Positions 7,898 to 20,759 of a stretch of 64,000 nt of DNA are shown in pieces. A program made the translations under genes and the position numbers. The DNA lies in the NCBI RefSeq assembly GCF_001642835.1, contig NZ_LXEI01000004.1, positions 62,001-126,000 on the forward strand. The letters run 5' to 3'. Position 1 is the stretch's first letter, and every line of letters starts with the position of its first letter. Under the pieces are notes generated by a model. That model saw only the letters and a list, made by a program, of their open reading frames with translations. It was not told where the DNA came from and did no database searches. Source of the stretch: Pseudotamlana agarivorans (GTDB lineage Bacteria; Bacteroidota; Bacteroidia; Flavobacteriales; Flavobacteriaceae).

Positions 7898-7917
7898 ATT
7901 CCTGCTTTCGCAGGAAT
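7898..7917. repeat. Perfect palindromic hairpin at the end of arsM
   Basis: ATTCCTGC and GCAGGAAT form an 8-bp perfect stem around a TTTC loop. The last base overlaps the arsM stop codon. There is no T-tract on the minus strand, so it is a dispersed palindrome or RNA-processing/stability hairpin rather than a classic terminator. Confidence 0.55.
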
Positions 7918-8885
7918 TAACAACATCCACCACCATCATAATGAAAAGTCGACTGACTAATAAAAATATCATCTCTATTTAAATTAGCTAAAGCGGCAGC
8001 GGTTTTATCACAAACGGCTAAAGGCTGATTTTTAAGTAAAACATGACCTTTTTTATCATCAAAATACTCGGATTCACCATAGTAAATAGCGGCTTTCCCT
8101 GTAAAAACACATGGGCCATCTTCTGGCATCGGGTCTTTTATAGCGGCTACTTCAATCGATTCGATATAGATTAATTCGTCAGTAGGATAATTTTTAGGAT
8201 CGAGAATACGGTAAGGTTTTCTAGCACGAATTTCAATGGTGCCAAAGCCAGCATCTGTTAATGCTTTTACGTATTCGTTAATGGGTAAACTTCCGCTTAA
8301 ACATAGGGCACGCAAGCGCTCGTCGTTACGTAAGGTATCATTCATTGGTTGTTCGCAAGTAGGGTCGCTCATTACCAGTTTGCCATGTGGTTTTAAAACG
8401 CGATACATTTCAGCAATGGCCTGCTTTAAATCTTCAGCTTTAAAAATATTAAACAAGCAGTTTTGTGCGGCAACGTCTATGCTATTATCTTCAACAGGAA
8501 GATTCATGGCGTCTCCTTTTTTCAGAGCTACAAATTCACTTTTAAACCAAGGGTTTTCGGCTTCAGCTTCAATAAAGTTTTTCCTAGAAGCTTCAAGCAT
8601 TTCATCAACTACATCAATACCTATAACACCATTTTTCTGACGATTAAAATAGGCGAATTGAAGCAATTCCATACCGCCTCCAACGCCAACATAAAGCATT
8701 TTTGGGTTGTTTGATAAATCACGCGCATGAACCGTAGAACCACAACCGTAATTCATCTCCTGCATGATTTTAGGGATTTTTAATCCCGGTAATTCCCAAA
8801 TAGGGTTAGTGGTGCAGCATAAACCTACATCTGGGGTTAATGCGGCTTCTTTATAAACGTTGTGTGTGGTGTCTAAATAACTCAT
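7917..8885 (-). CDS. arsM: Arsenite methyltransferase of the arsenosugar pathway
   Basis: A 322-residue SAM-dependent methyltransferase. The SAM site is visible as YVGVGGGMELL and VIGIDVVDEML, followed by a loop carrying DVAAQNCLFN. Cys residues expected to bind As(III) are present: a CCTTNP motif near residues 23-28, a Cys in the SAM-domain loop (QNC), and a C-terminal GGGCC tail typical of the ArsM subgroup linked to ArsS. It converts arsenite with SAM to mono- and dimethylarsenic species, the substrate for ArsS. A purine nucleoside phosphorylase lies upstream and the hydroxylase-DUF547-glycosyltransferase genes lie downstream. Short hairpins flank it on both sides. Confidence 0.85.
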   Translation of the reverse strand: MSYLDTTHNVYKEAALTPDVGLCCTTNPIWELPGLKIPKIMQEMNYGCGSTVHARDLSNNPKMLYVGVGGGMELLQFAYFNRQKNGVIGIDVVDEMLEASRKNFIEAEAENPWFKSEFVALKKGDAMNLPVEDNSIDVAAQNCLFNIFKAEDLKQAIAEMYRVLKPHGKLVMSDPTCEQPMNDTLRNDERLRALCLSGSLPINEYVKALTDAGFGTIEIRARKPYRILDPKNYPTDELIYIESIEVAAIKDPMPEDGPCVFTGKAAIYYGESEYFDDKKGHVLLKNQPLAVCDKTAAALANLNRDDIFISQSTFHYDGGGCC

Positions 8886-8895
8886 AATTTATATG

Positions 8896-8909
8896 CCCAC
8901 CAAAGTGGG
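8896..8909. repeat. Short hairpin upstream of arsM
   Basis: CCCAC-CAAA-GTGGG forms a 5-bp stem ending 10 nt upstream of the arsM ATG on the minus strand. It could be a dispersed repeat or could affect translation initiation. Confidence 0.35.
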
Positions 8910-8984
8910 AAACTTTTAATTTAAAGTTGAATATTTCAAATGAATAATAAATCGCTTTGATTATAAATTCAACCTGTTTTTCGC

Positions 8985-9797
8985 TTATAAATTTTTTATA
9001 AGCTCTTTAAATAGGGTGATCATATCTGGTTCGGCTTTATGTGCCATGGCGATGATATCCTCAATATTTACAGGTTCTAAGTGGTCTGGGTCGCATTCAT
9101 CGGTTAAAACTGACACGGCAGCCACTTTTAATTTTAAATGATTGGCCACAATAATTTCAGGAACCGTACTCATTCCAACGGCATCGGCACCTATAATTTT
9201 AAGCATGCGATATTCGGCACGTGTTTCTAATTGCGGACCAACAACACTAGCATATACACCAGAATGTAATGTGATGTTTTGTGCTTTGGCAATGTCTTTA
9301 AATTTGGTGTTTATTTCTGCATCATAAGGAGCGCTCATATCAACAAAACGTTCGCCCATTTTTTCTACGCCGTTAAAAGCAAGAGGTGAACTGCCTTGTA
9401 AATTGATGTGGTCTTCAATAAGCATAATGTCCCCTTTTTTAAAGTCTAAATTAATAGCTCCGGCCGCATTGGAAACTAATAAGGTATGAATGCCAAGTTT
9501 TTCCATAATGCGTACTGGGTAAGTCACATCCTGAAGCGTGTAACCTTCATATAAATGAAATCGGCCTTGCATAACTATAACTTTCTTTCCCTCTAGTTCT
9601 CCGTAGATTAATTTGCCTTTATGGAACTCAACAGTTGCAGTTGGAAAATAAGGGATGTGGTTATAGCTTATTTCTTTAATGATGTTGATGTGGTTAATCA
9701 GCTGTCCTAAGCCAGTACCTAGTATGATGCCGATTTCTGGTTTGTCAAATCCTTTTTCTATTAAATATTCGGTAGTTTTTTCTATCTGATTAATCAT
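8985..9797 (-). CDS. punA: Purine nucleoside phosphorylase
   Basis: A 270-residue trimeric-type PNP. Motifs seen: IILGTGLGQL with the phosphate-binding Gly loop near residues 23-32, MQGRFHLYEGY, VSNAAGAIN, and VGMSTVPEIIVANHLK with the purine-binding region. The usual activity is phosphorolysis of purine nucleosides to base and ribose-1-phosphate. Its place directly upstream of arsM suggests a second role. ArsS makes a dimethylarsinoyl-5'-deoxyadenosine-type product, and a phosphorylase could release adenine to leave an arsenoribose-1-phosphate for glycosyl transfer. That role is inference; simple purine salvage is the default reading. Confidence 0.88.
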   Translation of the reverse strand: MINQIEKTTEYLIEKGFDKPEIGIILGTGLGQLINHINIIKEISYNHIPYFPTATVEFHKGKLIYGELEGKKVIVMQGRFHLYEGYTLQDVTYPVRIMEKLGIHTLLVSNAAGAINLDFKKGDIMLIEDHINLQGSSPLAFNGVEKMGERFVDMSAPYDAEINTKFKDIAKAQNITLHSGVYASVVGPQLETRAEYRMLKIIGADAVGMSTVPEIIVANHLKLKVAAVSVLTDECDPDHLEPVNIEDIIAMAHKAEPDMITLFKELIKNL

Positions 9798-9926: not shown

Positions 9927-9977
9927 TTATAGGTGCCTTTCGCTAAATCTTGGCAACTTAATTTAAAAGCATACCAT

Positions 9978-10898
9978 ATGGTTTTGAAAATTTCAAAAAC
10001 TACACACGCATTATTCTTGTTTTTTTTTCTAACGGTTTCTATGAGTTTTGGTCAACAGGTGTTGCCTATTAAAATCTCCAAACTGCCAGAATTAAAAACA
10101 AACAAATGTAAGGCTCTAGAGAAGAATTTAAAAGCCGAACTGTCTAGAAATGCAAAATGGAAATCACTTATAGCCAATAAGAAAATGTCTATTGCAGTGG
10201 TCGATTTAAGTCATCACGACATAAAATATGCTGGAGTTAATGGAAATAACATGATGTATGCAGCCAGTTTGCCTAAAATTGCTGTTTTATATGCGGTTAT
10301 TGACGCTATCGATAAAGGAGAGGTTAAAGATACTCCAGAAATCCGTAAAGATTTAAAACTTATGATAGCAAAGTCAAACAACGCTGCGTCAACCAGAATG
10401 ATCGATTTGGTAGGTTATAAAAAAATTGAAGCTGTATTACGTAAAGCGGGAAATTCTTTATATGATCCAGGGACAGGAGGCGGGTTATGGGTCGGAAAAC
10501 GGTATGCAGCAGCAGGAAAGCGCTATCCAGATCCTATTAAAGGGTTAAGTCATGCAGCGACCCCATATCAAGCAGCAAATTTTTATTACCATCTGGTTTT
10601 TGGTAAACTTATAAGCTTTGAGCGTTCTGCCGAAATGTTAGAAATATTAAAAGACCCAGAATTGGGGCATAAATTTGTGTATACCCTTAGAGATATTGCG
10701 CCCAATGCTAAGCTATATCGTAAATCGGGATCATGGAAAAATTATCATTCCGATTCAGTACTTGTTTGGGGGCCTGAAAGAAGGTATATTTTAGTGGCTT
10801 TAATAGAAGACCCTAGAGGGGAGCAAATCGTTAGAAATTTAGTTAAGCCTGTAGAAAAAGTTCTAAAAAATTCGAATACCTTAAATTGTTCAAAATAA
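9978..10898 (+). CDS. Exported class-A-like serine hydrolase (penicillin-recognising fold)
   Basis: A 306-residue protein from the ATG at 9978, which opens a hydrophobic signal peptide ending near SMSFGQ. The serine beta-lactamase/PBP triad of motifs is present: SLPK at 97-100 (SxxK), SNN at 133-135 (in place of SDN) and KSG at 249-251 (KTG position). It should therefore be a periplasmic active-site-serine enzyme. The Glu166-type deacylation residue of true class A enzymes is not obvious, so D-Ala peptidase or another hydrolase activity is as likely as beta-lactamase. It is followed 10 nt later by a transporter-HEAT fusion, and a distant relative lies at 13848-15095. Confidence 0.8.
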   Translation: MVLKISKTTHALFLFFFLTVSMSFGQQVLPIKISKLPELKTNKCKALEKNLKAELSRNAKWKSLIANKKMSIAVVDLSHHDIKYAGVNGNNMMYAASLPKIAVLYAVIDAIDKGEVKDTPEIRKDLKLMIAKSNNAASTRMIDLVGYKKIEAVLRKAGNSLYDPGTGGGLWVGKRYAAAGKRYPDPIKGLSHAATPYQAANFYYHLVFGKLISFERSAEMLEILKDPELGHKFVYTLRDIAPNAKLYRKSGSWKNYHSDSVLVWGPERRYILVALIEDPRGEQIVRNLVKPVEKVLKNSNTLNCSK

Positions 10899-10908
10899 AC
10901 TGCAAAAC

Positions 10909-13725
10909 ATGGTAAAGAGACTGTTTCAGAAAACCTTTCATATTCGAGAAGGTGAATTTAAGATATCCATGTTCATGCAGCTGTATATCTTTTTAGTGAT
11001 TACAGTACTGCTTTTGGTTAAGCCAACAATAAATGCCTTGTTTTTATCCCATTTAGGTGCCGAAGAATTACCTAAAGCCTATCTATTAGTAGCGTTTACC
11101 GCGGTTATAACGGCTTATTTTTATGATAAGTCCTTGCAGTTTTTTAGCATAAAAAAAATCGCCATAGTCTCTTTAGTTGGGTTCAGTTTATGCTTTTTAT
11201 TACTAGCCTATATCTTGTATAATAATTTGAGTAACGATTTTATACTATATGCTTACTATCTGAGTGTGGCTATTTTTGGAGTGGTGGTAACCTCCCAATT
11301 TTGGATTATTGCTAACATGATTTACAACGCAAGGGAGGCTAAACGTTTGTTTGGTTTAATTGGTGCAGGGGCTATAATTGGTGGTATTGTTGGGGGATAT
11401 TTAACAACCATTTTATCTCAAACTATTGGAAGTATTTATGTTATTCTGTTAGCTTCTATACTGTTGCTGTTTTGTATTCCTATAATCATGTGGGTATGGA
11501 ACCATAGATTGCATAACACTACCGATGCAGAAACAGGTAAAACGCATAAACCGACACCTAAAAAACACCATTCTGCATTAAAGGTTATTTCGAGCTCTAA
11601 ACATTTAACATACTTAGCATTAACGATTGGTGTATCGGTAATTATGGCTAAATTGGTCGATTACCAGTTTAGTGATTTTGCTCAAATAAAAATATCAGAC
11701 CCCGATGAGTTGGCGTCGTTTTTCGGTTTTTGGTTCTCTACATTTAACGTGTTGTCATTGGTTATTCAGTTGTTTTTAACCAACCGACTTTTAGCATGGC
11801 TTGGGGTTACCTCAAATTTGTTGTTACTTCCCTTGGGGATAGCAGCGGGTTGTTTATTGTTCTTAATCTTTCCTGAATTATGGGTGCTTATCCTGCTAAA
11901 AGGTATGGATGGTAGCTTTAAACAGTCTATTAATAAGGCCGCTGTCGAGTTGTCTATTATGCCAATTCCTTATGAAGACAAAAAACAAGCAAAATCTTTT
12001 ATTGATGTGGTGGTCGATAGTATCGCTACAGGTATAGCGGGTTGCTTGCTTATTTTTGTTGTAAAGAAATTAGATTTGCATTCGCATTACATCACCGTCA
12101 TCATTCTATTCTTTTTGTTTGTTTGGATTATTTTAATCTATCAACTAAAAGGGGCTTATTTCGATACCTTCAAAAAGAATATTTTAAGTGCTATAGGGAG
12201 TCATGATATAGATGGTTTGCGAACTACTAAAAAATCGCTGCATGCCTCGGTTATAAAAATCCTTAATAAAGGAACCGATCAAGAAATTATTTCCTTGTTA
12301 GAAAGCCTAGGAGATACCATTGTCGATGTACATAAACCTCATATAGTGAAACTCCTAGATCATCCTTCCAATGAAGTAAAAGCTGCAGCCATAAAAGAAA
12401 TTTATTTCTTTAAACATGGCGCTGCCGCGGATAAAGTAGCTCAACTTATTGAAACTAACGATGATGCCGAGGTGGTTTATGAAGCCATGGAGTACCTTCT
12501 GTTGCATACCCATATCGATGAAGATAAGTTGTTCAAGAAATATTTAGATCATAACAAACCCTATATAGCAGATGCCGCTCTTTTGTGTTTGGCAGAGTTG
12601 GCGATAGACAATAAAAAATTGGTTAAAAATTATAGTTTGTTTGAGCGTATTGAAAGTCGAATTATCACCATTAAAAATTCTGAGATTGAACATACTCAAG
12701 AAGAAATTGCCGAGTTTTTAGTGACCATTGGTTATGCTCGTAATCCCAAGTTTTTCGATTTCATTACGGACTATTTAAAGTCTGATAACTATTATTTGTT
12801 AAATCATGCTGTTAAGGCAGCGGGAGTATCACTTTATAAACCTTTTATAGGAACCCTTTTAACTTTATTAGAAATTGATGCTGTACGACCTGCCGTAGTT
12901 ACCGCATTAAAAAACTTCGGAAATGATGTGCCTAAATACATTATTGAGCATGATGTTTATGATTCTTTCGATATTAATATAAGAAAACATTTTCCTAAAG
13001 CGATTGCTTCTATAAGAACACAAGACTCATTAAAAGTTTTAATGCGATTGGCGCTTTCTAGTGATCCGTTTATTAGACATGAAGCTGCTAAAACTATGGT
13101 TGATTTGCATTTTAAAGAGGGTGGTATAAAAATAGATAAAGAGCGTGTTACCCAAACCGTACTTAGTGAGTGTGGGTATTATCTAGAGCATTTGGCTATT
13201 GTAAATATACTTCAGGAGTCTACATTAGTGTCAGATCCTAATAATGCCGAATTAGAAATTAGTCTAGAACAGCTAATTGGCTTATTACGTCTGGAATTAG
13301 ACTGTAGTATGAATGTGGTTTTCGAAGTGCTAGCTTTAGTGCTAAGTGAAGACGATATGGAAATCGCTTATTTTGGGTTAAGAGACGAATCGGAAAGTGT
13401 TAAAGTAAATTCTATTGAATTTTTAGACAACTTACTAAGCGTTGGTTTGAAGTCCGATTTAATGCCCATAATAGAGCATCATTTTATTCAAGAACAAGAA
13501 ATCAATGCTCTTGCTGAGGTAACAGAAGCCCTAGGAAGTGCTACAAACTGTATCAATAAGCTATTAAAGGATGGAACCATTGACGTGAAAAAGGCGGTGT
13601 TAAATTTGGTGGTTCACTTAGATGATATTAAGCCATTTAAAAACGCCTTAAAACAATTAACCCATCATAAAGATGACGTTATTTGTTCTAAGGCGTTACA
13701 GATTTTAGAAGCCAATAAGTCTTAA
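10909..13725 (+). CDS. MFS/nucleotide-exchange-type transporter fused to HEAT repeats
   Basis: A 938-residue two-part protein. Residues about 15-415 hold roughly 11-12 hydrophobic helices with a central polar linker near 200-215. The stretch KPTINALFLSHLGAEELP resembles the start of bacterial NTP/NDP-exchange (ATP:ADP antiporter-like) transporters of the MFS clan. Residues about 430-938 form an alpha-solenoid with repeated helix pairs such as HPSNEVKAAAIKEI and DPFIRHEAAKTMV, which I read as HEAT repeats. Transported substrate unknown. It shares an operon with an exported serine hydrolase (10-nt gap) and faces the hydrolase-dikinase pair on the other strand. A general MFS permease is the alternative. 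Confidence 0.7.
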   Translation: MVKRLFQKTFHIREGEFKISMFMQLYIFLVITVLLLVKPTINALFLSHLGAEELPKAYLLVAFTAVITAYFYDKSLQFFSIKKIAIVSLVGFSLCFLLLAYILYNNLSNDFILYAYYLSVAIFGVVVTSQFWIIANMIYNAREAKRLFGLIGAGAIIGGIVGGYLTTILSQTIGSIYVILLASILLLFCIPIIMWVWNHRLHNTTDAETGKTHKPTPKKHHSALKVISSSKHLTYLALTIGVSVIMAKLVDYQFSDFAQIKISDPDELASFFGFWFSTFNVLSLVIQLFLTNRLLAWLGVTSNLLLLPLGIAAGCLLFLIFPELWVLILLKGMDGSFKQSINKAAVELSIMPIPYEDKKQAKSFIDVVVDSIATGIAGCLLIFVVKKLDLHSHYITVIILFFLFVWIILIYQLKGAYFDTFKKNILSAIGSHDIDGLRTTKKSLHASVIKILNKGTDQEIISLLESLGDTIVDVHKPHIVKLLDHPSNEVKAAAIKEIYFFKHGAAADKVAQLIETNDDAEVVYEAMEYLLLHTHIDEDKLFKKYLDHNKPYIADAALLCLAELAIDNKKLVKNYSLFERIESRIITIKNSEIEHTQEEIAEFLVTIGYARNPKFFDFITDYLKSDNYYLLNHAVKAAGVSLYKPFIGTLLTLLEIDAVRPAVVTALKNFGNDVPKYIIEHDVYDSFDINIRKHFPKAIASIRTQDSLKVLMRLALSSDPFIRHEAAKTMVDLHFKEGGIKIDKERVTQTVLSECGYYLEHLAIVNILQESTLVSDPNNAELEISLEQLIGLLRLELDCSMNVVFEVLALVLSEDDMEIAYFGLRDESESVKVNSIEFLDNLLSVGLKSDLMPIIEHHFIQEQEINALAEVTEALGSATNCINKLLKDGTIDVKKAVLNLVVHLDDIKPFKNALKQLTHHKDDVICSKALQILEANKS

Positions 13726-13840: not shown

Positions 13841-13874
13841 GACGAGATTAAACCTCAGGGTTTATAATCTCGTC
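13841..13874. terminator. Strong hairpin at the 3' end of the serine hydrolase gene, possible terminator
   Basis: GACGAGATTA (13841-13850) pairs with TAATCTCGTC (13865-13874). Inside, AACC-TCAG-GGTT adds four more pairs, separated from the outer stem by a two-base bulge. The left arm includes the hydrolase stop codon. No long T-tract follows on either strand (only AATTTTATT on +), so termination is plausible but not certain. The rest of the convergent gap 13726-13840 holds nothing clear. Confidence 0.45.
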
Positions 13875-15095
13875 AATTTTATTAGCTAAATTAAGGTGTT
13901 CCCATGCCGAATTTTTATTTAATACATTGGTCATTAAACAAACCATATATTTTTTGCCGTTAGGGTGTTCCACGATAATAACCGAATTCATATAGTTAAA
14001 AACGTTCCCTTGGTAGTCGCCACAACTCGGGTTTTTTGCACGATCACATTTATAGAAACTACCCGATTTAAAGTAAACAGCTGCTTCTTTTAGCTTTGGC
14101 GATTGCGCATAACGAATACGTCTATCTGTCAAATAAATAAGACGCTTCATTTCTAAGCTACTTTCTTTGTCGTGAATGTTACCCTGCTCTAAGGCAACTA
14201 AAAATTTCATTAATCCTTTAGGAGTGGCGCTACTTCCACCTTTTCTTCCTACGTATTTTGCCGAAGCATGGGTAAACATACCACCTAGCTTCCATTCGTC
14301 TTCACTAATTCCAATATCTCTTAATGGTTGATTAATAACACGATGAGCACGGTTGGTTAGGGTGTCATGACGGTTTTCTTTAAAATAGTTTAAAGCTTCT
14401 TCATCGGTAAGTTTAGGGTAATCTTTTCCAAAGTGATTCATTAACATCACCTCTCTAAAAACAACAGTAGCTGCACCATTATTACTTACAGAAACCATAT
14501 GATCCAACCATTCGTAAAGAGAAAACACATCACTAGCAACCACTTTACGTTTTACTTGACGATCTTTTTCAATGTCATAAACCGGAATCGTATGATGATC
14601 TCCAGTTCCGAAAATTCCAGAAGCGACGCGTTTATCACGCATCAATTCGGTTCTTTTATCCCATGAATCTGGATATATTTTTTTTAATTCTGAAAAGAAG
14701 GCGTTCAAAACAACAAGTTTACCCACACTTCCTGGTTGATAGCCATGGTTCTCGTTGTATGCGGCATATTTAAGATTGCTCGGATCGGTTATATCTAAAG
14801 CGGTAAGGGAGTAATTGCCGTGAGGAATCACTTTTTGAATTTCATTCGAAAACGCCTTGTCTTCAACAAGCATATCTTCTACAGATTCGCCATTACAGGA
14901 TACTAAATTGAGTTTAATATCTTCAAGTTTTAAAAGCGCTCCTTTAGGAATTCGGCTATAGCCTTTTTCACTGTTTACGGCTTTTTGCACATAGAGTAAT
15001 CGTGCTATCCCTGTCGATTCGTAACCGTCAATTGGGTAAATTAGGCTTAAAAAGCCAAGAGATAAGCCAAGGCCTAAAAATAAAAGTTTTTGCAT
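13848..15095 (-). CDS. Exported class-A-like serine hydrolase, larger paralogue
   Basis: A 415-residue protein with an N-terminal hydrophobic signal or anchor (LFLGLGLSLGFLSLI). Active-site motifs are SVGK at 123-126 (SxxK), SNN at 204-206 and KSG at 343-345. The body is longer than typical class A beta-lactamases (about 290 residues), with extra segments before the SxxK motif and between SNN and KSG. It follows the exported dikinase-like gene by 4 nt and is clearly in its operon. Motif order matches the hydrolase at 9978-10898, but overall similarity looks low. Substrate unknown; a peptide, ester or amide of the cell envelope is possible. Confidence 0.78.
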   Translation of the reverse strand: MQKLLFLGLGLSLGFLSLIYPIDGYESTGIARLLYVQKAVNSEKGYSRIPKGALLKLEDIKLNLVSCNGESVEDMLVEDKAFSNEIQKVIPHGNYSLTALDITDPSNLKYAAYNENHGYQPGSVGKLVVLNAFFSELKKIYPDSWDKRTELMRDKRVASGIFGTGDHHTIPVYDIEKDRQVKRKVVASDVFSLYEWLDHMVSVSNNGAATVVFREVMLMNHFGKDYPKLTDEEALNYFKENRHDTLTNRAHRVINQPLRDIGISEDEWKLGGMFTHASAKYVGRKGGSSATPKGLMKFLVALEQGNIHDKESSLEMKRLIYLTDRRIRYAQSPKLKEAAVYFKSGSFYKCDRAKNPSCGDYQGNVFNYMNSVIIVEHPNGKKYMVCLMTNVLNKNSAWEHLNLANKIDEIINPEV

Positions 15096-15099
15096 GGTT

Positions 15100-18021
15100 T
15101 TAAATTTTTGAATTTAGATCAACGTGTTGTTTGTAATCAATTTTTGGTGTGATTGATTTTAGGTACTCCGAACTAGAAGCTTTTTTGTTTTCTACAAATG
15201 GTCGTATTTGAAATAACCAAAGTTTATCATCTTTAAAGCCCATTTCCATATCATACGGACCTCTGTAGTCCGAGCCAGTTTGTTCTGGCATTTTTTTACG
15301 AACCTGAGCCACCATGTCTCTTACCGACTGCATGTTTTTCTCAGATAAGATAGGCGCTTCAAAGGTGGTGTATTCACGTTTGGTACCGCCTGTTTTTGGT
15401 AAGCTTAAAAAGCTTGGTTCTCTTGAAGGGGACAATAATTGGTTCGAATGACTGGCAACCATTCTTGTTTCTGCCGACTGCCCATCAACAGCACCACCAG
15501 CACCTTTACTAAAGGCTATGGTTAAATCATCTTTTCCACCAGCATTAATTCCAGTCGTTACTACCACTCCAGAATAATCTACGTTTACACCTGGGATAAC
15601 AAGAATTGAAGGGAAAACATATTCTGGGTTAAGTAAATATTTTTGACGCCATTTTAAACTTCTTTCCATATATGGTGAGGCCCAAACTTGTTTAATACCA
15701 TCAATAATGTTCTTTTCAGTAAGAACATTAAATAAGGTTAAGTTGAGTCCAGCACCGGTAAACTCTTTTAAGTCTTCCATATTAGTGTCACTTCGCAAAA
15801 ACACAGGGGTTTCTCCAATAGGTTTGTTAAAGGCTTTTTTGAAATGCTCACGTAACTGGGCAATAAAATCACGGTTTAAATCCATGTTAATGATGGCCGT
15901 TCTTAAAACACTTAGGCGACTAAACTGATAAGCTTCCACTTCATTTTCAGTTTTATTAGCCTTTTTCATGTTTTCACATTCTTGATACGTTTGTTTTAAA
16001 TATTCCCAATAGGTCATATTTTGTCCCTTCATTGGGTTGTCAAGATGTTTTCTGAAAATTCCAAAAGGAATTACAAAACCTTCAACAACGTGATCAGGAA
16101 ACATGTGTTTTAATTGTGATAAATTAGCTGCTTTTGGTCCACAAAGTTTTCCAGAATCGGAAGCATCTACTTCACGCATATTTAAAATATCGGTTTGATC
16201 TAATTGAATGCGATCTACAGGAACTGTAATTTTATTGGTGCTGCGTTCCACTTTACTGAAAAGGGCTTTTTCTTCGGAAGTCATTTGTTTTTCCGTTTTT
16301 AAAATAACATTCCCTTTTGTTGAAACAGCATAGAATACTTTTTTGCCATTGTATTTCGCTAAATCATCTAGGTTACCCTGCGAAAGTGCTGCATTAGGAA
16401 CCCCTAGGTTTCTTGCAAGTAACTGTACGTGTGAAACCAAGTTTCCTTCAGAAACTGTCATGATACCAGCTACAGGTTTTAAGCCTGAAGGTGGTCTGTT
16501 AAATACATAAATTTTATCTTTAGAAAAGTCGATGTTTTCAATAGATCCTTCTACCACGACCAATTCACCATAGGCATAACCAGGGTTTAATCCTCTAATG
16601 GTAGCTGGTTTAGAAACACCAATCACTTCATTTTTAATGGATGATTTTTCAGAGATATATTTACCTAAAATAGCCACGCTGTTACCTAAATCTAAGGCTA
16701 TGGAAGAACGAATTCTATCATCGATAAAACCATAAGCTTTAGGCTCAAACTGCGAGTAAGTTTCAACAGTTTCACTATAAACCGCTTTTACCATACCAGC
16801 ACTCCACTCTACAATACTTCTAGAGGTTCCTAAAACATCATTTAACTCGGCGATGGTTAAGTGGTTTTTGTCTTTGTATAACGTTAAATCGTGATTGGCT
16901 TTGTCGTATTCCCAAAGTTCAATAAGCCCAGTTGCAGCGGCGATGTAACTTAAATAATCTATTTTTTCAAGCATGTCACGTAGGTGGCTTGGTTGCCATT
17001 CTTGTGAAGTTTGGAAAACTGTCTTTTCAATTTTATTAGAAATATCTAAGGCATAAAGTTTGTCTTTGGCCGAACTTAAAGCATCAAAGTGTTTTCTAAT
17101 ATACATCAATACAGAGCCTAATGCAGAAATTTGTTCTTTGGCAGAAGCGTTTTCGCTGTAAGCATTTAATAACTCCGTAATTTTAGATTTATGTGTTGAA
17201 GAAAGTTTATTCGTTAGGTTTTTAATGTCTTTGATGTCAAGAGGTTTGTAGTAATCCTCCATGGTGTTTATCAACGTATTGAACTCCTTCTTTTCGTTTT
17301 CAGATAGTGTCGAACTGTGTTTAGACACATAGTCTTTTACTGAAGCGATATCTCTTTTTTCTGGATTTCCATGTATTTTAATTCTAAGCTTCATAAACGA
17401 AGGCACCTCATTACCAAGAACTTTTGATTCACTACGCATTTTTTGAGCCAAATTGGTATCTCCTGAATGCGGAATATCGGTTAAAGACTGTTTTAATAAA
17501 AAGAAATGGCCATTGGTGCGTTGGTTACTTTTTAATAACCATTCGTAAAATTCTAAGCCCCAATTCTGTTCGTCTTCCGATTGCATAGCCCCGCGATAAA
17601 ACTGTCCGCGTCTGTAAATCCAGCCGTCATCTGCATTCTGTAAAAACTTTACCAGTTGGTATTGTTTTAATCGGCTGTTGTTGTGTGCTTCATCCCAAAA
17701 GGCTTCGTTTTCATTTTGAGCAAGGATATTAGAGAAATATATATGATGATCGTTGCCTAGTTTTTCAACGTCAGTTTTAAGGCTGGCATGTTGAATACCT
17801 CCAATATTATCTGGACATGGATCTTTAGGTTCACGCATCGTGCCATCGTCGCAATACCATTTAATACGGTGGTATGGCCCTCTAACATCTTTTTTGTATG
17901 CTTCAATTTGAGATTTAATTTTTTCAATGGGTAAGTCTTGAGCAGTTACAGGCGAACTAAGTCCAAGACAACCCAATACCATGAGTTTGGTTGTAAACTT
18001 CTGGAAGGTTGGTAATTTCAT
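15100..18021 (-). CDS. Exported PEP/pyruvate-dikinase-like protein with glucan-water-dikinase domain order
   Basis: A 973-residue protein. Residues 1-28 form a signal peptide with a likely cut after PVTAQ. Residues about 29-460 are alpha-helical and not recognised. Residues about 465-575 form a phosphohistidine swivelling domain, with the motif TVSEGNLVSHVQLLARNLG placing the phospho-acceptor at His531. Residues about 618-943 form the PPDK-type ATP-grasp domain: GPKAANLSQL, VFLRSDTNMEDL near 740-751, and the final DMEMGF...LWLFQIRPF near 924-942. The swivel domain thus precedes the ATP-binding domain, as in glucan water dikinases and unlike PEP synthase. No PEP-binding barrel is seen. An ATP-using fold with a signal peptide is odd, because the periplasm has no ATP pool. 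A serine hydrolase follows by 4 nt. Confidence 0.75.
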   Translation of the reverse strand: MKLPTFQKFTTKLMVLGCLGLSSPVTAQDLPIEKIKSQIEAYKKDVRGPYHRIKWYCDDGTMREPKDPCPDNIGGIQHASLKTDVEKLGNDHHIYFSNILAQNENEAFWDEAHNNSRLKQYQLVKFLQNADDGWIYRRGQFYRGAMQSEDEQNWGLEFYEWLLKSNQRTNGHFFLLKQSLTDIPHSGDTNLAQKMRSESKVLGNEVPSFMKLRIKIHGNPEKRDIASVKDYVSKHSSTLSENEKKEFNTLINTMEDYYKPLDIKDIKNLTNKLSSTHKSKITELLNAYSENASAKEQISALGSVLMYIRKHFDALSSAKDKLYALDISNKIEKTVFQTSQEWQPSHLRDMLEKIDYLSYIAAATGLIELWEYDKANHDLTLYKDKNHLTIAELNDVLGTSRSIVEWSAGMVKAVYSETVETYSQFEPKAYGFIDDRIRSSIALDLGNSVAILGKYISEKSSIKNEVIGVSKPATIRGLNPGYAYGELVVVEGSIENIDFSKDKIYVFNRPPSGLKPVAGIMTVSEGNLVSHVQLLARNLGVPNAALSQGNLDDLAKYNGKKVFYAVSTKGNVILKTEKQMTSEEKALFSKVERSTNKITVPVDRIQLDQTDILNMREVDASDSGKLCGPKAANLSQLKHMFPDHVVEGFVIPFGIFRKHLDNPMKGQNMTYWEYLKQTYQECENMKKANKTENEVEAYQFSRLSVLRTAIINMDLNRDFIAQLREHFKKAFNKPIGETPVFLRSDTNMEDLKEFTGAGLNLTLFNVLTEKNIIDGIKQVWASPYMERSLKWRQKYLLNPEYVFPSILVIPGVNVDYSGVVVTTGINAGGKDDLTIAFSKGAGGAVDGQSAETRMVASHSNQLLSPSREPSFLSLPKTGGTKREYTTFEAPILSEKNMQSVRDMVAQVRKKMPEQTGSDYRGPYDMEMGFKDDKLWLFQIRPFVENKKASSSEYLKSITPKIDYKQHVDLNSKI

Positions 18022-18162: not shown

Positions 18163-18771
18163 TTACTTTTCTGAAGAAAGCAGCTTCAATAGGTGCTGAT
18201 ACGGTTTTAAATCCTCGAAAGTGTCAATGTCGTTTAAAGTTTCTAGCTTGGTAACGGAAATGTTTTTTTCTGAAAGTTCTTGTAGAGTTACTTCAAGTAA
18301 CTGCGTTTGACTCCAAGGTTTGTTTTCGAAGATGCATGCATGCATTTTACTTAGGCCAACAAGATAATATCCGCCATCTTGTGCGGGACCAAAAACAACC
18401 TCAGTTTTAAGAAGATTTTCTAAGGCATTGTTAAGGTGTTCGTTTGTTAAACTCGGTAAATCAGAACCTATTAAAACCACGCGTTGGTAGCCTTGTTGAA
18501 AGGCGTTTTGAAAGGCATTCTTCATACGTTCACCTAAATCTTGACCTTGTTGGGTGGTTTTATGAGCTCCTTTCCATAAGCTGTTGTCTATGAATTCAGA
18601 ATAATGTATGGAAACATCTGTCAAAATATTTTCAGTGGCCCTTTCTGTGATTTCTAACAAAGCTTGGTAAATTTCAACAGCTTTTTCGTTTCCAATAGTT
18701 TTGGCCAATCGGGTTTTTACTTTGCCTGGTTTAGCATTTTTAACGAAAACAATTACGAGTGCTTTATTCAT
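18163..18771 (-). CDS. TIGR04282-type glycosyltransferase (DUF2064, arsenosugar-associated)
   Basis: A 202-residue GT-A-like protein of the DUF2064 / TIGR04282 family. The N-terminal ALVIVFVKNAKPGKVKTRLA is a nucleotide-binding loop like that of MobA/CofC nucleotidyltransferases. VLIGSDLPSL and FGPAQDGGYYLVGL are the family's DxD and catalytic-region motifs. These proteins co-occur with ArsS and the TIGR04283 glycosyltransferase. A nucleotidyl transfer that makes an NDP-activated sugar is as plausible as glycosyl transfer. It overlaps the rhodanese gene by 8 nt (ATGAATAA), so it belongs to the ArsS operon 20759-18163. Confidence 0.82.
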   Translation of the reverse strand: MNKALVIVFVKNAKPGKVKTRLAKTIGNEKAVEIYQALLEITERATENILTDVSIHYSEFIDNSLWKGAHKTTQQGQDLGERMKNAFQNAFQQGYQRVVLIGSDLPSLTNEHLNNALENLLKTEVVFGPAQDGGYYLVGLSKMHACIFENKPWSQTQLLEVTLQELSEKNISVTKLETLNDIDTFEDLKPYQHLLKLLSSEK

Positions 18772-19261
18772 AAACTTTTATACCATTTTTTAACCATTTG
18801 CGCCATGATTTTGAATAGGTGTGGATGCTATCGGTTTTTTTATTTTGCTTGTTGTAAACAGGGTAGTCGTTATTTTTCCACTGAAAAATACCGCCATAGA
18901 GATTGTTTACATGGGTGTAACCTGCCTGTTTAAGTTCGTTAGCTATTTTTTCAGAACGCATACCCAAGGAGCAATACACGACAATTTCTGTTTGCTTGTC
19001 TGGGATTCTTTGAATCACAGAATCTATGCTAAAAAAATTATAGCCAACAAATATAGCGTTTTCAAGGTGACTAACTTGGTACTCCTTTTGTTCTCTAGAG
19101 TCTAAAAGCACAAATTTGTTATAATGCTTCGCAAGTGAATCAACATATAAATAGGGGATGTTATGTTGATTGTGTTTTTCTAAAAGTTTTTCTATAGTTT
19201 TTTGACCATAAAGTTGCAAACAGCTAATAAAACCTATGAAAAAAAGAAAGTGTAATTTCAT
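18764..19261 (-). CDS. Exported rhodanese-like protein
   Basis: A 165-residue protein from the ATG at 19261, which starts a signal peptide (MKLHFLFFIGFISCLQLYGQ). An in-frame ATG 63 nt upstream would overlap arsS and is rejected. The rhodanese domain is complete: LLDSREQKEYQVSHLENA, then the active-site loop VVYCSLGMRSEK with the catalytic Cys, then LYGGIFQWKN. Rhodaneses transfer sulfane sulfur or act as thiol/arsenate-reductase-fold proteins. Between ArsS and the TIGR04282 protein, it may handle thiolated or oxidised arsenic species in the periplasm; that is inference. It is translationally coupled to the next gene by the 8-nt overlap. Confidence 0.82.
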   Translation of the reverse strand: MKLHFLFFIGFISCLQLYGQKTIEKLLEKHNQHNIPYLYVDSLAKHYNKFVLLDSREQKEYQVSHLENAIFVGYNFFSIDSVIQRIPDKQTEIVVYCSLGMRSEKIANELKQAGYTHVNNLYGGIFQWKNNDYPVYNKQNKKTDSIHTYSKSWRKWLKNGIKVYE

Positions 19262-19302
19262 GTGTGCTAGACTTATATTTTGGTTACTGTTTCCACAGAA
19301 AT

Positions 19303-20358
19303 TTAAGTAACCACACCTTGGCAACTACTTCCTGCTCCAGCTGTACATCCATAACAATGTTGGGAAATCGTAATATTTCGCCCTTCTAACAAGTTTTCAT
19401 TATAATCGGAAATATGTTTCACCGGACTATTTACTGGAAGTTCCAGCATTTGGTTAAAATCGCAATCATATAAAAAACCGTCCCAACTAACCGAAATCGT
19501 GTTGGTACACATAACGCTTTTAACGGCTGTAGGGTTGTAGGCTTCCACTAAGGCGTACATATAATCTTCATAGTTTTCAGAAGCAATGAGGTAATCTAAA
19601 AACCTTGAAATAGGGAGATTGGTAATAGCAAATAAGTGATGAAAATCGATGTTGAAATCTTCTTTCAGAGCCTTTTTGAAATCTTTTTCCATCGAAGCTT
19701 GGTCGCCTGGTAAGAAGGCTCCCGATGGATTGTAAACCAAATCTAATTTTAAATCACTACCGGGCATGCCATAACCTATGGCGTTGAGGTCTTTTAATGC
19801 CTGAATAGATTTATCAAAAACACCATCACCGCGTTGTTTATCTGTCTTTCCTCTCGTCCAATGCGGCATAGAACTTACCACGTGCACATGATGTTTCTTG
19901 AAAAATTCAGGGAGGTCGTGGTATTTTTTATTGGCACGAATAATGGTTAGGTTGGAGCGCACAATAAAATCTTGAATGCCGGCCTTTGCAGCTTCTTCAA
20001 CGAACCATCTAAAATTCGGATTCATTTCTGGTGCACCACCGGTAAGGTCTAAAGTATGAGCCCCGGTTTTTTTTATAACATCCAAACACTGCTGCATGGT
20101 GTCGCGTGTCATGATTTCTTTACGGTCCGGACCAGCATCAACATGGCAATGTGCACAAACTTGGTTGCACATATAGCCTAAGTTAATTTGTAAAATCTCT
20201 AGTTTTTTTGCTTTTAGAGGATATTGTTGGGTTTCCGAAATTTTAGCCTTAAAAGTAGGTAATTCACCGTTTTGGAAAATTCCGTTAGACAGAATCTTAA
20301 GCTGTGCTTCACTTTTCTTTAAAGCGCTTTCTCGTTTGTTTAAAGACTGTATGGGCAT
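19303..20358 (-). CDS. arsS: Radical SAM arsenosugar biosynthesis protein ArsS
   Basis: A 351-residue radical SAM protein of the ArsS / TIGR04167 group. The cluster-binding CNQVCAHC (CxxxCxxC) lies near residues 64-71. TGGAPEMNP is the SAM-binding GGE-like motif. The C-terminal DUF3641 region has further Cys residues, ending in CYGCTAGAGSSCQG, the position where some relatives carry selenocysteine; here the codon is TGC, so Cys. ArsS transfers the 5'-deoxyadenosyl group of SAM to dimethylarsenite, giving the precursor of arsenosugars. It lies between an AhpD-like protein and an exported rhodanese in one operon. ArsM, its substrate supplier, is 10 kb away in the window. Confidence 0.88.
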   Translation of the reverse strand: MPIQSLNKRESALKKSEAQLKILSNGIFQNGELPTFKAKISETQQYPLKAKKLEILQINLGYMCNQVCAHCHVDAGPDRKEIMTRDTMQQCLDVIKKTGAHTLDLTGGAPEMNPNFRWFVEEAAKAGIQDFIVRSNLTIIRANKKYHDLPEFFKKHHVHVVSSMPHWTRGKTDKQRGDGVFDKSIQALKDLNAIGYGMPGSDLKLDLVYNPSGAFLPGDQASMEKDFKKALKEDFNIDFHHLFAITNLPISRFLDYLIASENYEDYMYALVEAYNPTAVKSVMCTNTISVSWDGFLYDCDFNQMLELPVNSPVKHISDYNENLLEGRNITISQHCYGCTAGAGSSCQGVVT

Positions 20359-20423
20359 TGAGATGTTTAATTTTTAGTGTAGGTTATAAATTGGCAACGA
20401 AATAAACGTAATTTCTAATCAGA

Positions 20424-20759
20424 TTACATTTCCAATTTATTCACCTTATTCATCATTTGAACCCCATGGACTAAAGTAGCCCCGCTTTTAATGGCAGCGC
20501 CTACATGTACAGCTTCCATCATTTCTTCCTTGGTGATACCGCGTTGTAAACTGTCTTTGGTATAGGCATCAATACAATAAGGACATTGTTCGGTGTGCGA
20601 AACTGCTAAAGCGATTAAAGCCTTTTCACGAGCGGTAAGCGCCCCTTCTTCAAAAACTTTTCCATAGTAATCGAAAAATTTTTCACCTAATGTTTCATTC
20701 CATTCACTTATTTTGCCAAATTTTTTTAAATCGGCTGGGTCGTAATATGATTTCTGCAT
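20424..20759 (-). CDS. Arsenosugar-associated peroxidase-like protein (AhpD fold)
   Basis: A 111-residue carboxymuconolactone-decarboxylase/AhpD-core protein. The active-site motif EQCPYCID (CxxC) lies near residues 58-65, followed by the family's HVGAAIKSGATLVHG. Proteins of this size and motif set are annotated as arsenosugar biosynthesis-associated peroxidase-like proteins because they travel with ArsS. The CxxC pair could reduce or bind an arsenic intermediate; no activity is proven. It is the first gene of the arsS run, 65 nt upstream of arsS. A 7-bp inverted repeat (AAATCCG at 20825 / CGGATTT at 20858) lies upstream. Confidence 0.85.
   Translation of the reverse strand: MQKSYYDPADLKKFGKISEWNETLGEKFFDYYGKVFEEGALTAREKALIALAVSHTEQCPYCIDAYTKDSLQRGITKEEMMEAVHVGAAIKSGATLVHGVQMMNKVNKLEM

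What the first reader, a model, noticed from the sequence alone, without database searches (positions are those of the whole stretch)
15100..18021. Signal-peptide-bearing dikinase with the swivel domain ahead of the ATP-grasp domain
The protein has a clear N-terminal signal peptide, a phosphohistidine domain (His531) and then a PPDK-type ATP-grasp domain, with no PEP barrel. This order is that of glucan water dikinases. Export of an enzyme that needs ATP is unexpected; either it works outside on an imported nucleotide, uses another donor, or has lost catalysis. The N-terminal 430 residues are unrecognised.
Basis: partly seen in the sequence, partly recalled or inferred. Interest (0 to 1): 0.75.

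Follow-up and report, generated by a model that had tools for sequence, protein, structure and literature searches.

The report
Exported dikinase paired with ATP carrier
This marine-type bacterium exports a phosphate-transferring enzyme that should need ATP out of the cytoplasm, and in relatives its gene is inherited together with a gene for an ATP-carrier-like membrane protein, which suggests that some bacteria may send ATP out on purpose to power chemistry in the cell envelope.

Summary
The gene at 15100-18021 (-) encodes a signal peptide, a mostly helical domain of undetermined fold, a phosphohistidine domain (His531) and a PPDK-type ATP-grasp domain, with no PEP barrel found. Six catalytic positions are invariant in 86 of 86 aligned rows, so lost catalysis is unlikely. 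The main discovery lies next door: the gene belongs to a four-gene module, exported dikinase plus exported PBP-like serine hydrolase (BLAb), usually facing a second such hydrolase (BLAa) plus an ATP/ADP-translocase-like protein (NTT-HEAT). Among 249 Flavobacteriaceae genomes the same 48 hold full-length dikinase, NTT-HEAT and BLAb, and all 48 hold BLAa; the other 201 hold none of the first three at the thresholds used. Where the genes have moved apart they are still kept. Best explanation: NTT-HEAT supplies ATP to the periplasm for a dikinase reaction on an envelope substrate. The module is shown; transport direction, substrate and chemistry are inferred. Against: two deep-branching genomes have dikinase and both hydrolases but not the module-type NTT, and more distant exported dikinases (two with T9SS tails) occur in genomes without any NTT hit. 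Glucan water dikinase is the nearest architecture; membership is not supported.

The parts
15100..18021 (-). exported dikinase gene (DIK), 973 aa
   Evidence: ORF; PPDK_N; orthologs
17938..18021 (-). signal peptide, residues 1-28 (cleavage after about TAQ, judged by eye)
   Evidence: hydrophobic core kept in orthologs
16600..17937 (-). N-terminal mostly helical domain, residues 29-474, with invariant Cys57 and Cys69; fold undetermined
   Evidence: AlphaFold models; no clear match; both cysteines in 86 of 86 rows
16252..16599 (-). phosphohistidine (swivel) domain, about residues 475-590, His531
   Evidence: model confidence low at 512-545
15163..16200 (-). PPDK-type ATP-grasp domain, residues 608-953 (Lys630, Arg743, Glu926, Gln938, Arg940)
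13848..15095 (-). BLAb: exported PBP/class-A-beta-lactamase-like serine hydrolase, 4 bases after DIK
   Evidence: PF13354 E 1.7e-10; SxxK, SxN and KSG kept in 84 of 84 rows; downstream of DIK in 80 of 80 loci; gap <=50 bases in 81 of 88
10909..13725 (+). NTT-HEAT: ATP/ADP-translocase-like transporter domain (about 1-430) plus HEAT repeats (from about 478)
   Evidence: PF03219 E 7.5e-14 and PF13646 E 2.4e-16; matches solved carriers 9j3j (5.5e-07) and 9j3n (5.2e-06)
9933..10898 (+). BLAa: second exported PBP-like serine hydrolase, 10 bases before NTT-HEAT (start probably the ATG at 9978, residue 16)
   Evidence: PF13354 E 7.6e-20; SxxK, SxN and KSG kept in 73 of 73 rows; residues 4-10 and 17-19 are gaps in at least 97% of rows

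Best explanation
An extracytoplasmic phosphoryl-transfer module with its own nucleotide supply. SHOWN: four genes (BLAa, NTT-HEAT, DIK, BLAb) form a conserved set; DIK, BLAa and BLAb have signal-peptide-like leaders and intact active-site motifs; NTT-HEAT is an ATP/ADP-translocase-type membrane protein by sequence. INFERRED: NTT-HEAT moves ATP from cytoplasm to periplasm (probably against ADP, AMP or phosphate); DIK binds it in its ATP-grasp domain, phosphorylates His531, and the swivel domain carries the phosphate to an acceptor held by the N-terminal helical domain, giving AMP + Pi + phospho-acceptor as in water dikinases. BLAa and BLAb, PBP-fold serine enzymes, prepare or process that acceptor, most simply a cell-envelope polymer (peptidoglycan or an attached glycan; least certain step). 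TerC, a metal transporter serving exported enzymes, in some of these operons would supply the divalent metal.
For: The same 48 of 249 Flavobacteriaceae genomes hold full-length DIK, NTT-HEAT and BLAb, and all 48 hold BLAa; outside them only one strong BLAa (G173) and one weak (G036). Chance of identical 48-genome sets if independent: 1.5e-52 (ignores shared ancestry). In 80 named-genome loci BLAb lies downstream of DIK in 80, NTT-HEAT is in the locus in 70, BLAa in 69; the genomes of all 10 loci without NTT carry an NTT-HEAT elsewhere (8, 2). Genes separated but all kept in G135, G170, G171, so the link is not only hitch-hiking. G002, same genus, lacks all four. In a tree of 43 NTT domains those of module genomes, unlinked G135, G171 and G443 included, are one side of a branch (96/88) against those of genomes without DIK (exceptions under evidence against). 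The next most common neighbour family is in 18 of 90 loci. Catalytic residues intact. A TerC-type gene lies in or beside the DIK operon in 5 of 90 loci (PF03741 checked in 3 of them); TerC proteins metalate exported enzymes in Bacillus subtilis (PMC10550928, abstract and outline seen).
Against: No activity, direction or substrate is shown. G447 and G462 (deepest orthologs) have DIK, BLAb and BLAa side by side but their NTTs fall outside the module clade. More distant exported pHis-ATP-grasp proteins exist in genomes without NTT-HEAT: six of the 249 (G031, G074, G083, G150, G185, G222), and G043, G056 and G059 have no NTT hit at E<=1e-5, two of these with T9SS-tailed dikinases; so export of such an enzyme does not require this carrier. 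NTT-HEATs of a more distant kind occur without DIK in at least eight of 345 Bacteroidota genomes. Characterised NTTs import ATP or swap ATP/ADP, while a dikinase yields AMP (recalled). Swivel domain poorly modelled (pLDDT under 50 over most of 512-545).
Confidence: 0.55

Rival explanations
1. Scavenging in reverse: DIK runs backwards outside the inner membrane, making ATP from AMP, Pi and a phosphorylated environmental compound, and NTT-HEAT imports that ATP or nucleotide.
For: Same gene associations; dikinases such as PPDK are reversible and characterised NTTs import ATP (both recalled). The hydrolases could free the phospho-compound.
Against: No fifth gene, such as an outer-membrane receptor, is a constant neighbour; water-type dikinases favour ATP use (recalled).
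Confidence: 0.12
2. Exported detoxification: DIK inactivates a foreign compound as rifampin phosphotransferase does, and the two beta-lactamase-like proteins hydrolyse others.
Confidence: 0.08
3. A true exported alpha-glucan (starch/glycogen) water dikinase acting on polysaccharide in the periplasm.
For: Swivel-then-ATP-grasp order; weak GWD1_pHisD hits in 11 of 39 members.
Against: No carbohydrate-binding module in the window protein at E<=1 and no constant fifth neighbour (the rarer neighbours were not identified by family, so glycan genes among them are not excluded).
Confidence: 0.1
4. DIK works without ATP from NTT-HEAT, using ATP already outside or another donor; the four genes cooperate in the envelope in some other way (for example NTT-HEAT carries a non-nucleotide substrate).
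For: Distant exported dikinases, two with T9SS tails, live in genomes without an NTT hit; G447 and G462 lack the module-type NTT.
Against: Does not by itself explain 48 of 48 co-occurrence with an ATP/ADP-translocase relative.
Confidence: 0.15

Closest known systems
Glucan water dikinase (GWD) / phosphoglucan water dikinase
   Same: Phosphohistidine domain ahead of the PPDK-type ATP-grasp domain (GWD order recalled), essential histidine (PMC12892837, passages seen), no PEP barrel
   Different: Bacterial, exported, N-terminal helical domain of undetermined fold instead of carbohydrate-binding modules; part of a module with a nucleotide-carrier relative; substrate unknown
Rifampin phosphotransferase / PEP synthase (pyruvate, water dikinase)
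   Different: Domain order, export, no rifampin-binding or PEP-barrel domain found
NTT-HEAT nucleotide transporter fusions (Major et al. 2017, PMC5381601, passages seen)
   Same: NTT domain followed by HEAT repeats, also in free-living bacteria, function unknown
   Different: Here a clade whose genomes all carried the exported dikinase in my samples; the passages read mention no dikinase link
Distant exported PPDK_N proteins L032 (1324 aa), L034 (835 aa), L033 (628 aa)
   Same: Signal-like leader, pHis before ATP-grasp, catalytic residues kept where aligned
   Different: No module partners in the loci seen, different remaining parts, two with T9SS tails, 24-28% identity over the aligned region

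Membership tests
Dikinase superfamily (pHis + PPDK-type ATP-grasp) | ATP-grasp PPDK_N domain above curated cut-off | tested here: met
   91.7 bits against 27; 39 of 39 members hit
Dikinase superfamily (pHis + PPDK-type ATP-grasp) | Phosphorylatable histidine and nucleotide-binding residues | tested here: met
   His531, Lys630, Arg743, Glu926, Gln938, Arg940 in 86 of 86 rows; the role of each residue is recalled from PPDK
Dikinase superfamily (pHis + PPDK-type ATP-grasp) | ATP-dependent autophosphorylation | not testable with these tools
   needs purified protein
Glucan water dikinase | pHis domain before ATP-grasp | tested here: met
   order
Glucan water dikinase | GWD1_pHisD above curated cut-off | tested here: not met
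   12.7 bits against 27 in the window protein; 11 of 39 members at E<=0.5, best E 0.017
Glucan water dikinase | N-terminal carbohydrate-binding modules | tested here: not met
   no CBM hit at E<=1 in the window protein
Glucan water dikinase | alpha-glucan as acceptor | not testable with these tools
   needs an enzyme assay
PEP synthase / PPDK | ATP-grasp first, then pHis, then PEP barrel | tested here: not met
   reverse order, no barrel hit at E<=1; PEP synthase models have their best stretch on the ATP-grasp part and lie far below cut-off
Rifampin phosphotransferase | whole-length RPH model above cut-off | tested here: not met
   51.3 bits against 999, residues 612-942 only
NTT nucleotide transporters (gene 10909-13725) | TLC ATP/ADP transporter domain above cut-off | tested here: met
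   51.8 bits against 21; the NCBIfam TIGR00769 cut-off is not reached (35.6 against 387.2)
NTT nucleotide transporters (gene 10909-13725) | nucleotide transport | not testable with these tools
   needs a transport assay
Class A beta-lactamase (BLAa, BLAb) | SxxK, SxN, KTG/KSG motifs | tested here: met
   84 of 84 BLAb and 73 of 73 BLAa rows (the middle residue of SxN varies)
Class A beta-lactamase (BLAa, BLAb) | class A model above cut-off | tested here: not met
   11.9 (BLAb) and 22.5 (BLAa) bits against 200
Class A beta-lactamase (BLAa, BLAb) | omega-loop Glu166 general base | tested here: inconclusive
   no conserved Glu seen by eye at the expected place in the sequences; not structurally aligned

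The most novel reading that the evidence does not exclude
A categorically new system: bacteria that actively export ATP through a dedicated NTT-HEAT translocase to power a secreted dikinase which, with two PBP-like serine hydrolases, phosphorylates a cell-envelope polymer in the periplasm; ATP-driven covalent chemistry outside the cytoplasm with its own fuel line, which would also give a first function for a clade of NTT-HEAT proteins.
Probability: 0.45. Interest if true: 0.93.

Novelty: new variant of a known kind. Interest (0 to 1): 0.82.

Why it matters
The periplasm is usually taken to lack ATP (recalled), so enzymes there are expected to use other energy sources. The tight genetic pairing of an exported ATP-grasp enzyme with an ATP/ADP-translocase relative makes a direct test possible: is ATP exported on purpose to drive envelope chemistry? 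It would also give a functional lead for NTT-HEAT proteins, described as widespread in bacteria and uncharacterised (PMC5381601, passages seen).

Tried and rejected

Caveats on counts. The 1.5e-52 figure assumes independent genomes, which they are not. Left out of residue counts as incomplete: L068 (DIK), L037 and L068 (BLAb), L069 (NTT), L039 and L078 (BLAa). Of six deep genomes, five were used for BLAb and five for BLAa. The NTT tree used 20 of 70 module NTT rows plus 23 others, cut to the first 470 residues, and has long branches. In one search, 11 of 50 BLAa rows list in-frame stops in the matched stretch; in G013 and G019 intact ORFs of 303 and 306 aa were seen, the rest were not looked into.

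Full report

Export and activity. Orthologs in the first search (47-98% identical) and 80 loci from named genomes (52-84%) keep a hydrophobic N-terminus of differing sequence: 78 of 80 complete rows pass a crude hydrophobic-core test, and L057 and L069, whose ORF as taken starts late, have such a leader in frame upstream. BLAb passes in 78 of 79 and BLAa in 65 of 68. The test is unspecific by itself (270 of 580 other ORFs pass), so the weight is on conservation and on the block straight after it: 19 of residues 43-79 are conserved in at least 97% of rows. Cys57 and Cys69 are in 86 of 86 rows, which would suit a disulfide outside the cytoplasm (inference). His531, Lys630, Arg743, Glu926, Gln938 and Arg940 are in 86 of 86 rows, six of them from genomes outside the family. 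This looks like an exported enzyme under selection for catalysis, not a relic.

The neighbours. Four bases after DIK lies BLAb (13848-15095), a Beta-lactamase2 protein with a leader; convergent to them lie BLAa (9933-10898, also Beta-lactamase2) and, 10 bases on, a protein with a TLC ATP/ADP transporter domain and HEAT repeats (10909-13725). The latter matches the solved ATP/ADP carriers 9j3j (chloroplastic) and 9j3n. In all eight ortholog loci first fetched around full-length DIK, the same four genes are together (L024-L031), although in four (L028-L031) the outer flanks are largely unlike the window's.

Co-occurrence. I searched the same 249 Flavobacteriaceae genomes (own genome included) with each of the four proteins. 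DIK: 54 with a match at E<=1e-10, 48 full-length and 6 distant and partial. NTT-HEAT: 53, of which 48 full-length and 5 with only NTT-domain hits. BLAb: 48 at E<=1e-6. BLAa: 50 at E<=1e-6, the 48 plus one strong (G173) and one weak (G036). The sets of 48 are identical; G173 and G036 have no NTT hit. Genome G002, same genus as the window, has none of the four. The probability of identical sets under independence, 1.5e-52, ignores ancestry; the better argument is what happens when linkage breaks. In 80 named-genome loci BLAb is downstream of DIK in 80, NTT-HEAT in the locus in 70 (one cut at the locus end, L069), BLAa in 69. The genomes of all 10 loci without NTT carry an NTT-HEAT elsewhere (8; L037 and L068). 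In G135, G170 and G171 the genes lie on separate stretches or contigs yet all are present. Where NTT and DIK share a locus they are on opposite strands in 76 of 77.

Wider distribution. In 345 Bacteroidota genomes, 11 have a full-length DIK, six of them outside the family. All 11 have an NTT match, but not of one kind. Nine have a close NTT-HEAT (E below 1e-120), and no other of the 345 has such a close one; at least eight genomes without DIK have more distant full-length ones (E 1e-79 to 2e-90). In a tree of 43 NTT domains the module NTTs, with those of G135, G171, G333 and G443, are one side of a branch (96/88) and those of genomes without DIK the other; the NTTs of G447 and G462 fall with the latter (several long branches, so deep placement is unsure). 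G447 and G462 still have DIK, BLAb and BLAa side by side. So the deepest core is DIK-BLAb-BLAa, and the specific NTT-HEAT is present in the other DIK genomes that I tested for it. This counts against an absolute need for this particular carrier.

Other exported dikinases. Distant homologs with the same order and a leader occur without the module. Two (L032, 1324 aa, G043; L034, 835 aa, G059) end in a T9SS sorting domain (PF18962), and the catalytic His, Lys and Arg are kept in the aligned parts. G043, G056, G059 and G031 have no NTT hit at E<=1e-5, and six genomes of the 249 with such homologs have no NTT-HEAT. So exported swivel-first dikinases are a wider class, and some must do without this carrier.

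Mechanism. Recalled for the families: a dikinase splits ATP into AMP, Pi and a phosphohistidine, and NTTs exchange nucleotides. The simplest reading that joins the exported ATP-grasp enzyme with the ATP/ADP-carrier relative is that the carrier feeds it. The two PBP-like enzymes keep SxxK, SxN and KSG motifs (84 of 84; 73 of 73), so they are probably active acyl-serine enzymes; their fold family points to peptidoglycan or a related envelope polymer, but this is the weakest step. TerC-type genes sit in or beside the DIK operon in 5 of 90 loci (L030, L054, L059, L084 after BLAb, L134 just before DIK; a sixth, L095, is 2.9 kb off on the other strand; PF03741 confirmed in L030, L059 and L134). TerC proteins metalate exported enzymes in Bacillus subtilis (PMC10550928, abstract and outline seen), which fits an exported metal-dependent ATP-grasp enzyme; the other 84 loci show no such neighbour in the stretch held.

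Comparison and novelty. GWD shares the order (recalled; the essential histidine is in passages of PMC12892837) but neither a CBM nor the family score was met, so I do not file it there. PMC5381601 (passages seen) describes NTT-HEAT fusions as widespread and of unknown function. Two papers in the library hold the term 'NTT-HEAT', and the listings of my other searches show no exported dikinase linked to one; subscription journals and preprints are largely outside that library. The enzyme is a new variant of the dikinases; the module, if it works as proposed, would be a new kind of system.

Noticed in passing
L032:4629-8603 and L034:7017-9524: Distant swivel-first PPDK_N proteins with a leader and a C-terminal T9SS sorting domain: apparently ATP-grasp enzymes secreted out of the cell, in genomes without an NTT hit.
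   Followed up: partly
L139:3940-9657, L142:2597-6606, L145, L148: Non-module NTT-HEATs lie next to an Omp85-type barrel (PF01103 in L139 and L142) and a 560-600 aa lipoprotein-like protein with no Pfam family: perhaps another NTT-HEAT-linked envelope system.
   Followed up: partly
L030, L054, L059, L084, L134: TerC-family membrane protein inside or beside the dikinase operon.
   Followed up: partly
window 7917-9797 and 18163-20759: The module sits inside what may be an arsenosugar gene cluster: the TIGR04282 arsenosugar glycosyltransferase and its rhodanese neighbour are above cut-off; the methyltransferase, nucleoside phosphorylase and radical SAM genes were only read by eye. L028-L031 have other flanks.
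   Followed up: no
L028, L030, L054, L059, L060, L083, L084: An Amidohydro_2-type protein (PF04909 checked in L030 only) lies upstream of the dikinase, close in most, about 7 kb off in L059.
   Followed up: no
G173 and G036: BLAa-like gene without the other three (strong in G173, weak in G036), possibly a remnant or a relative.
   Followed up: no
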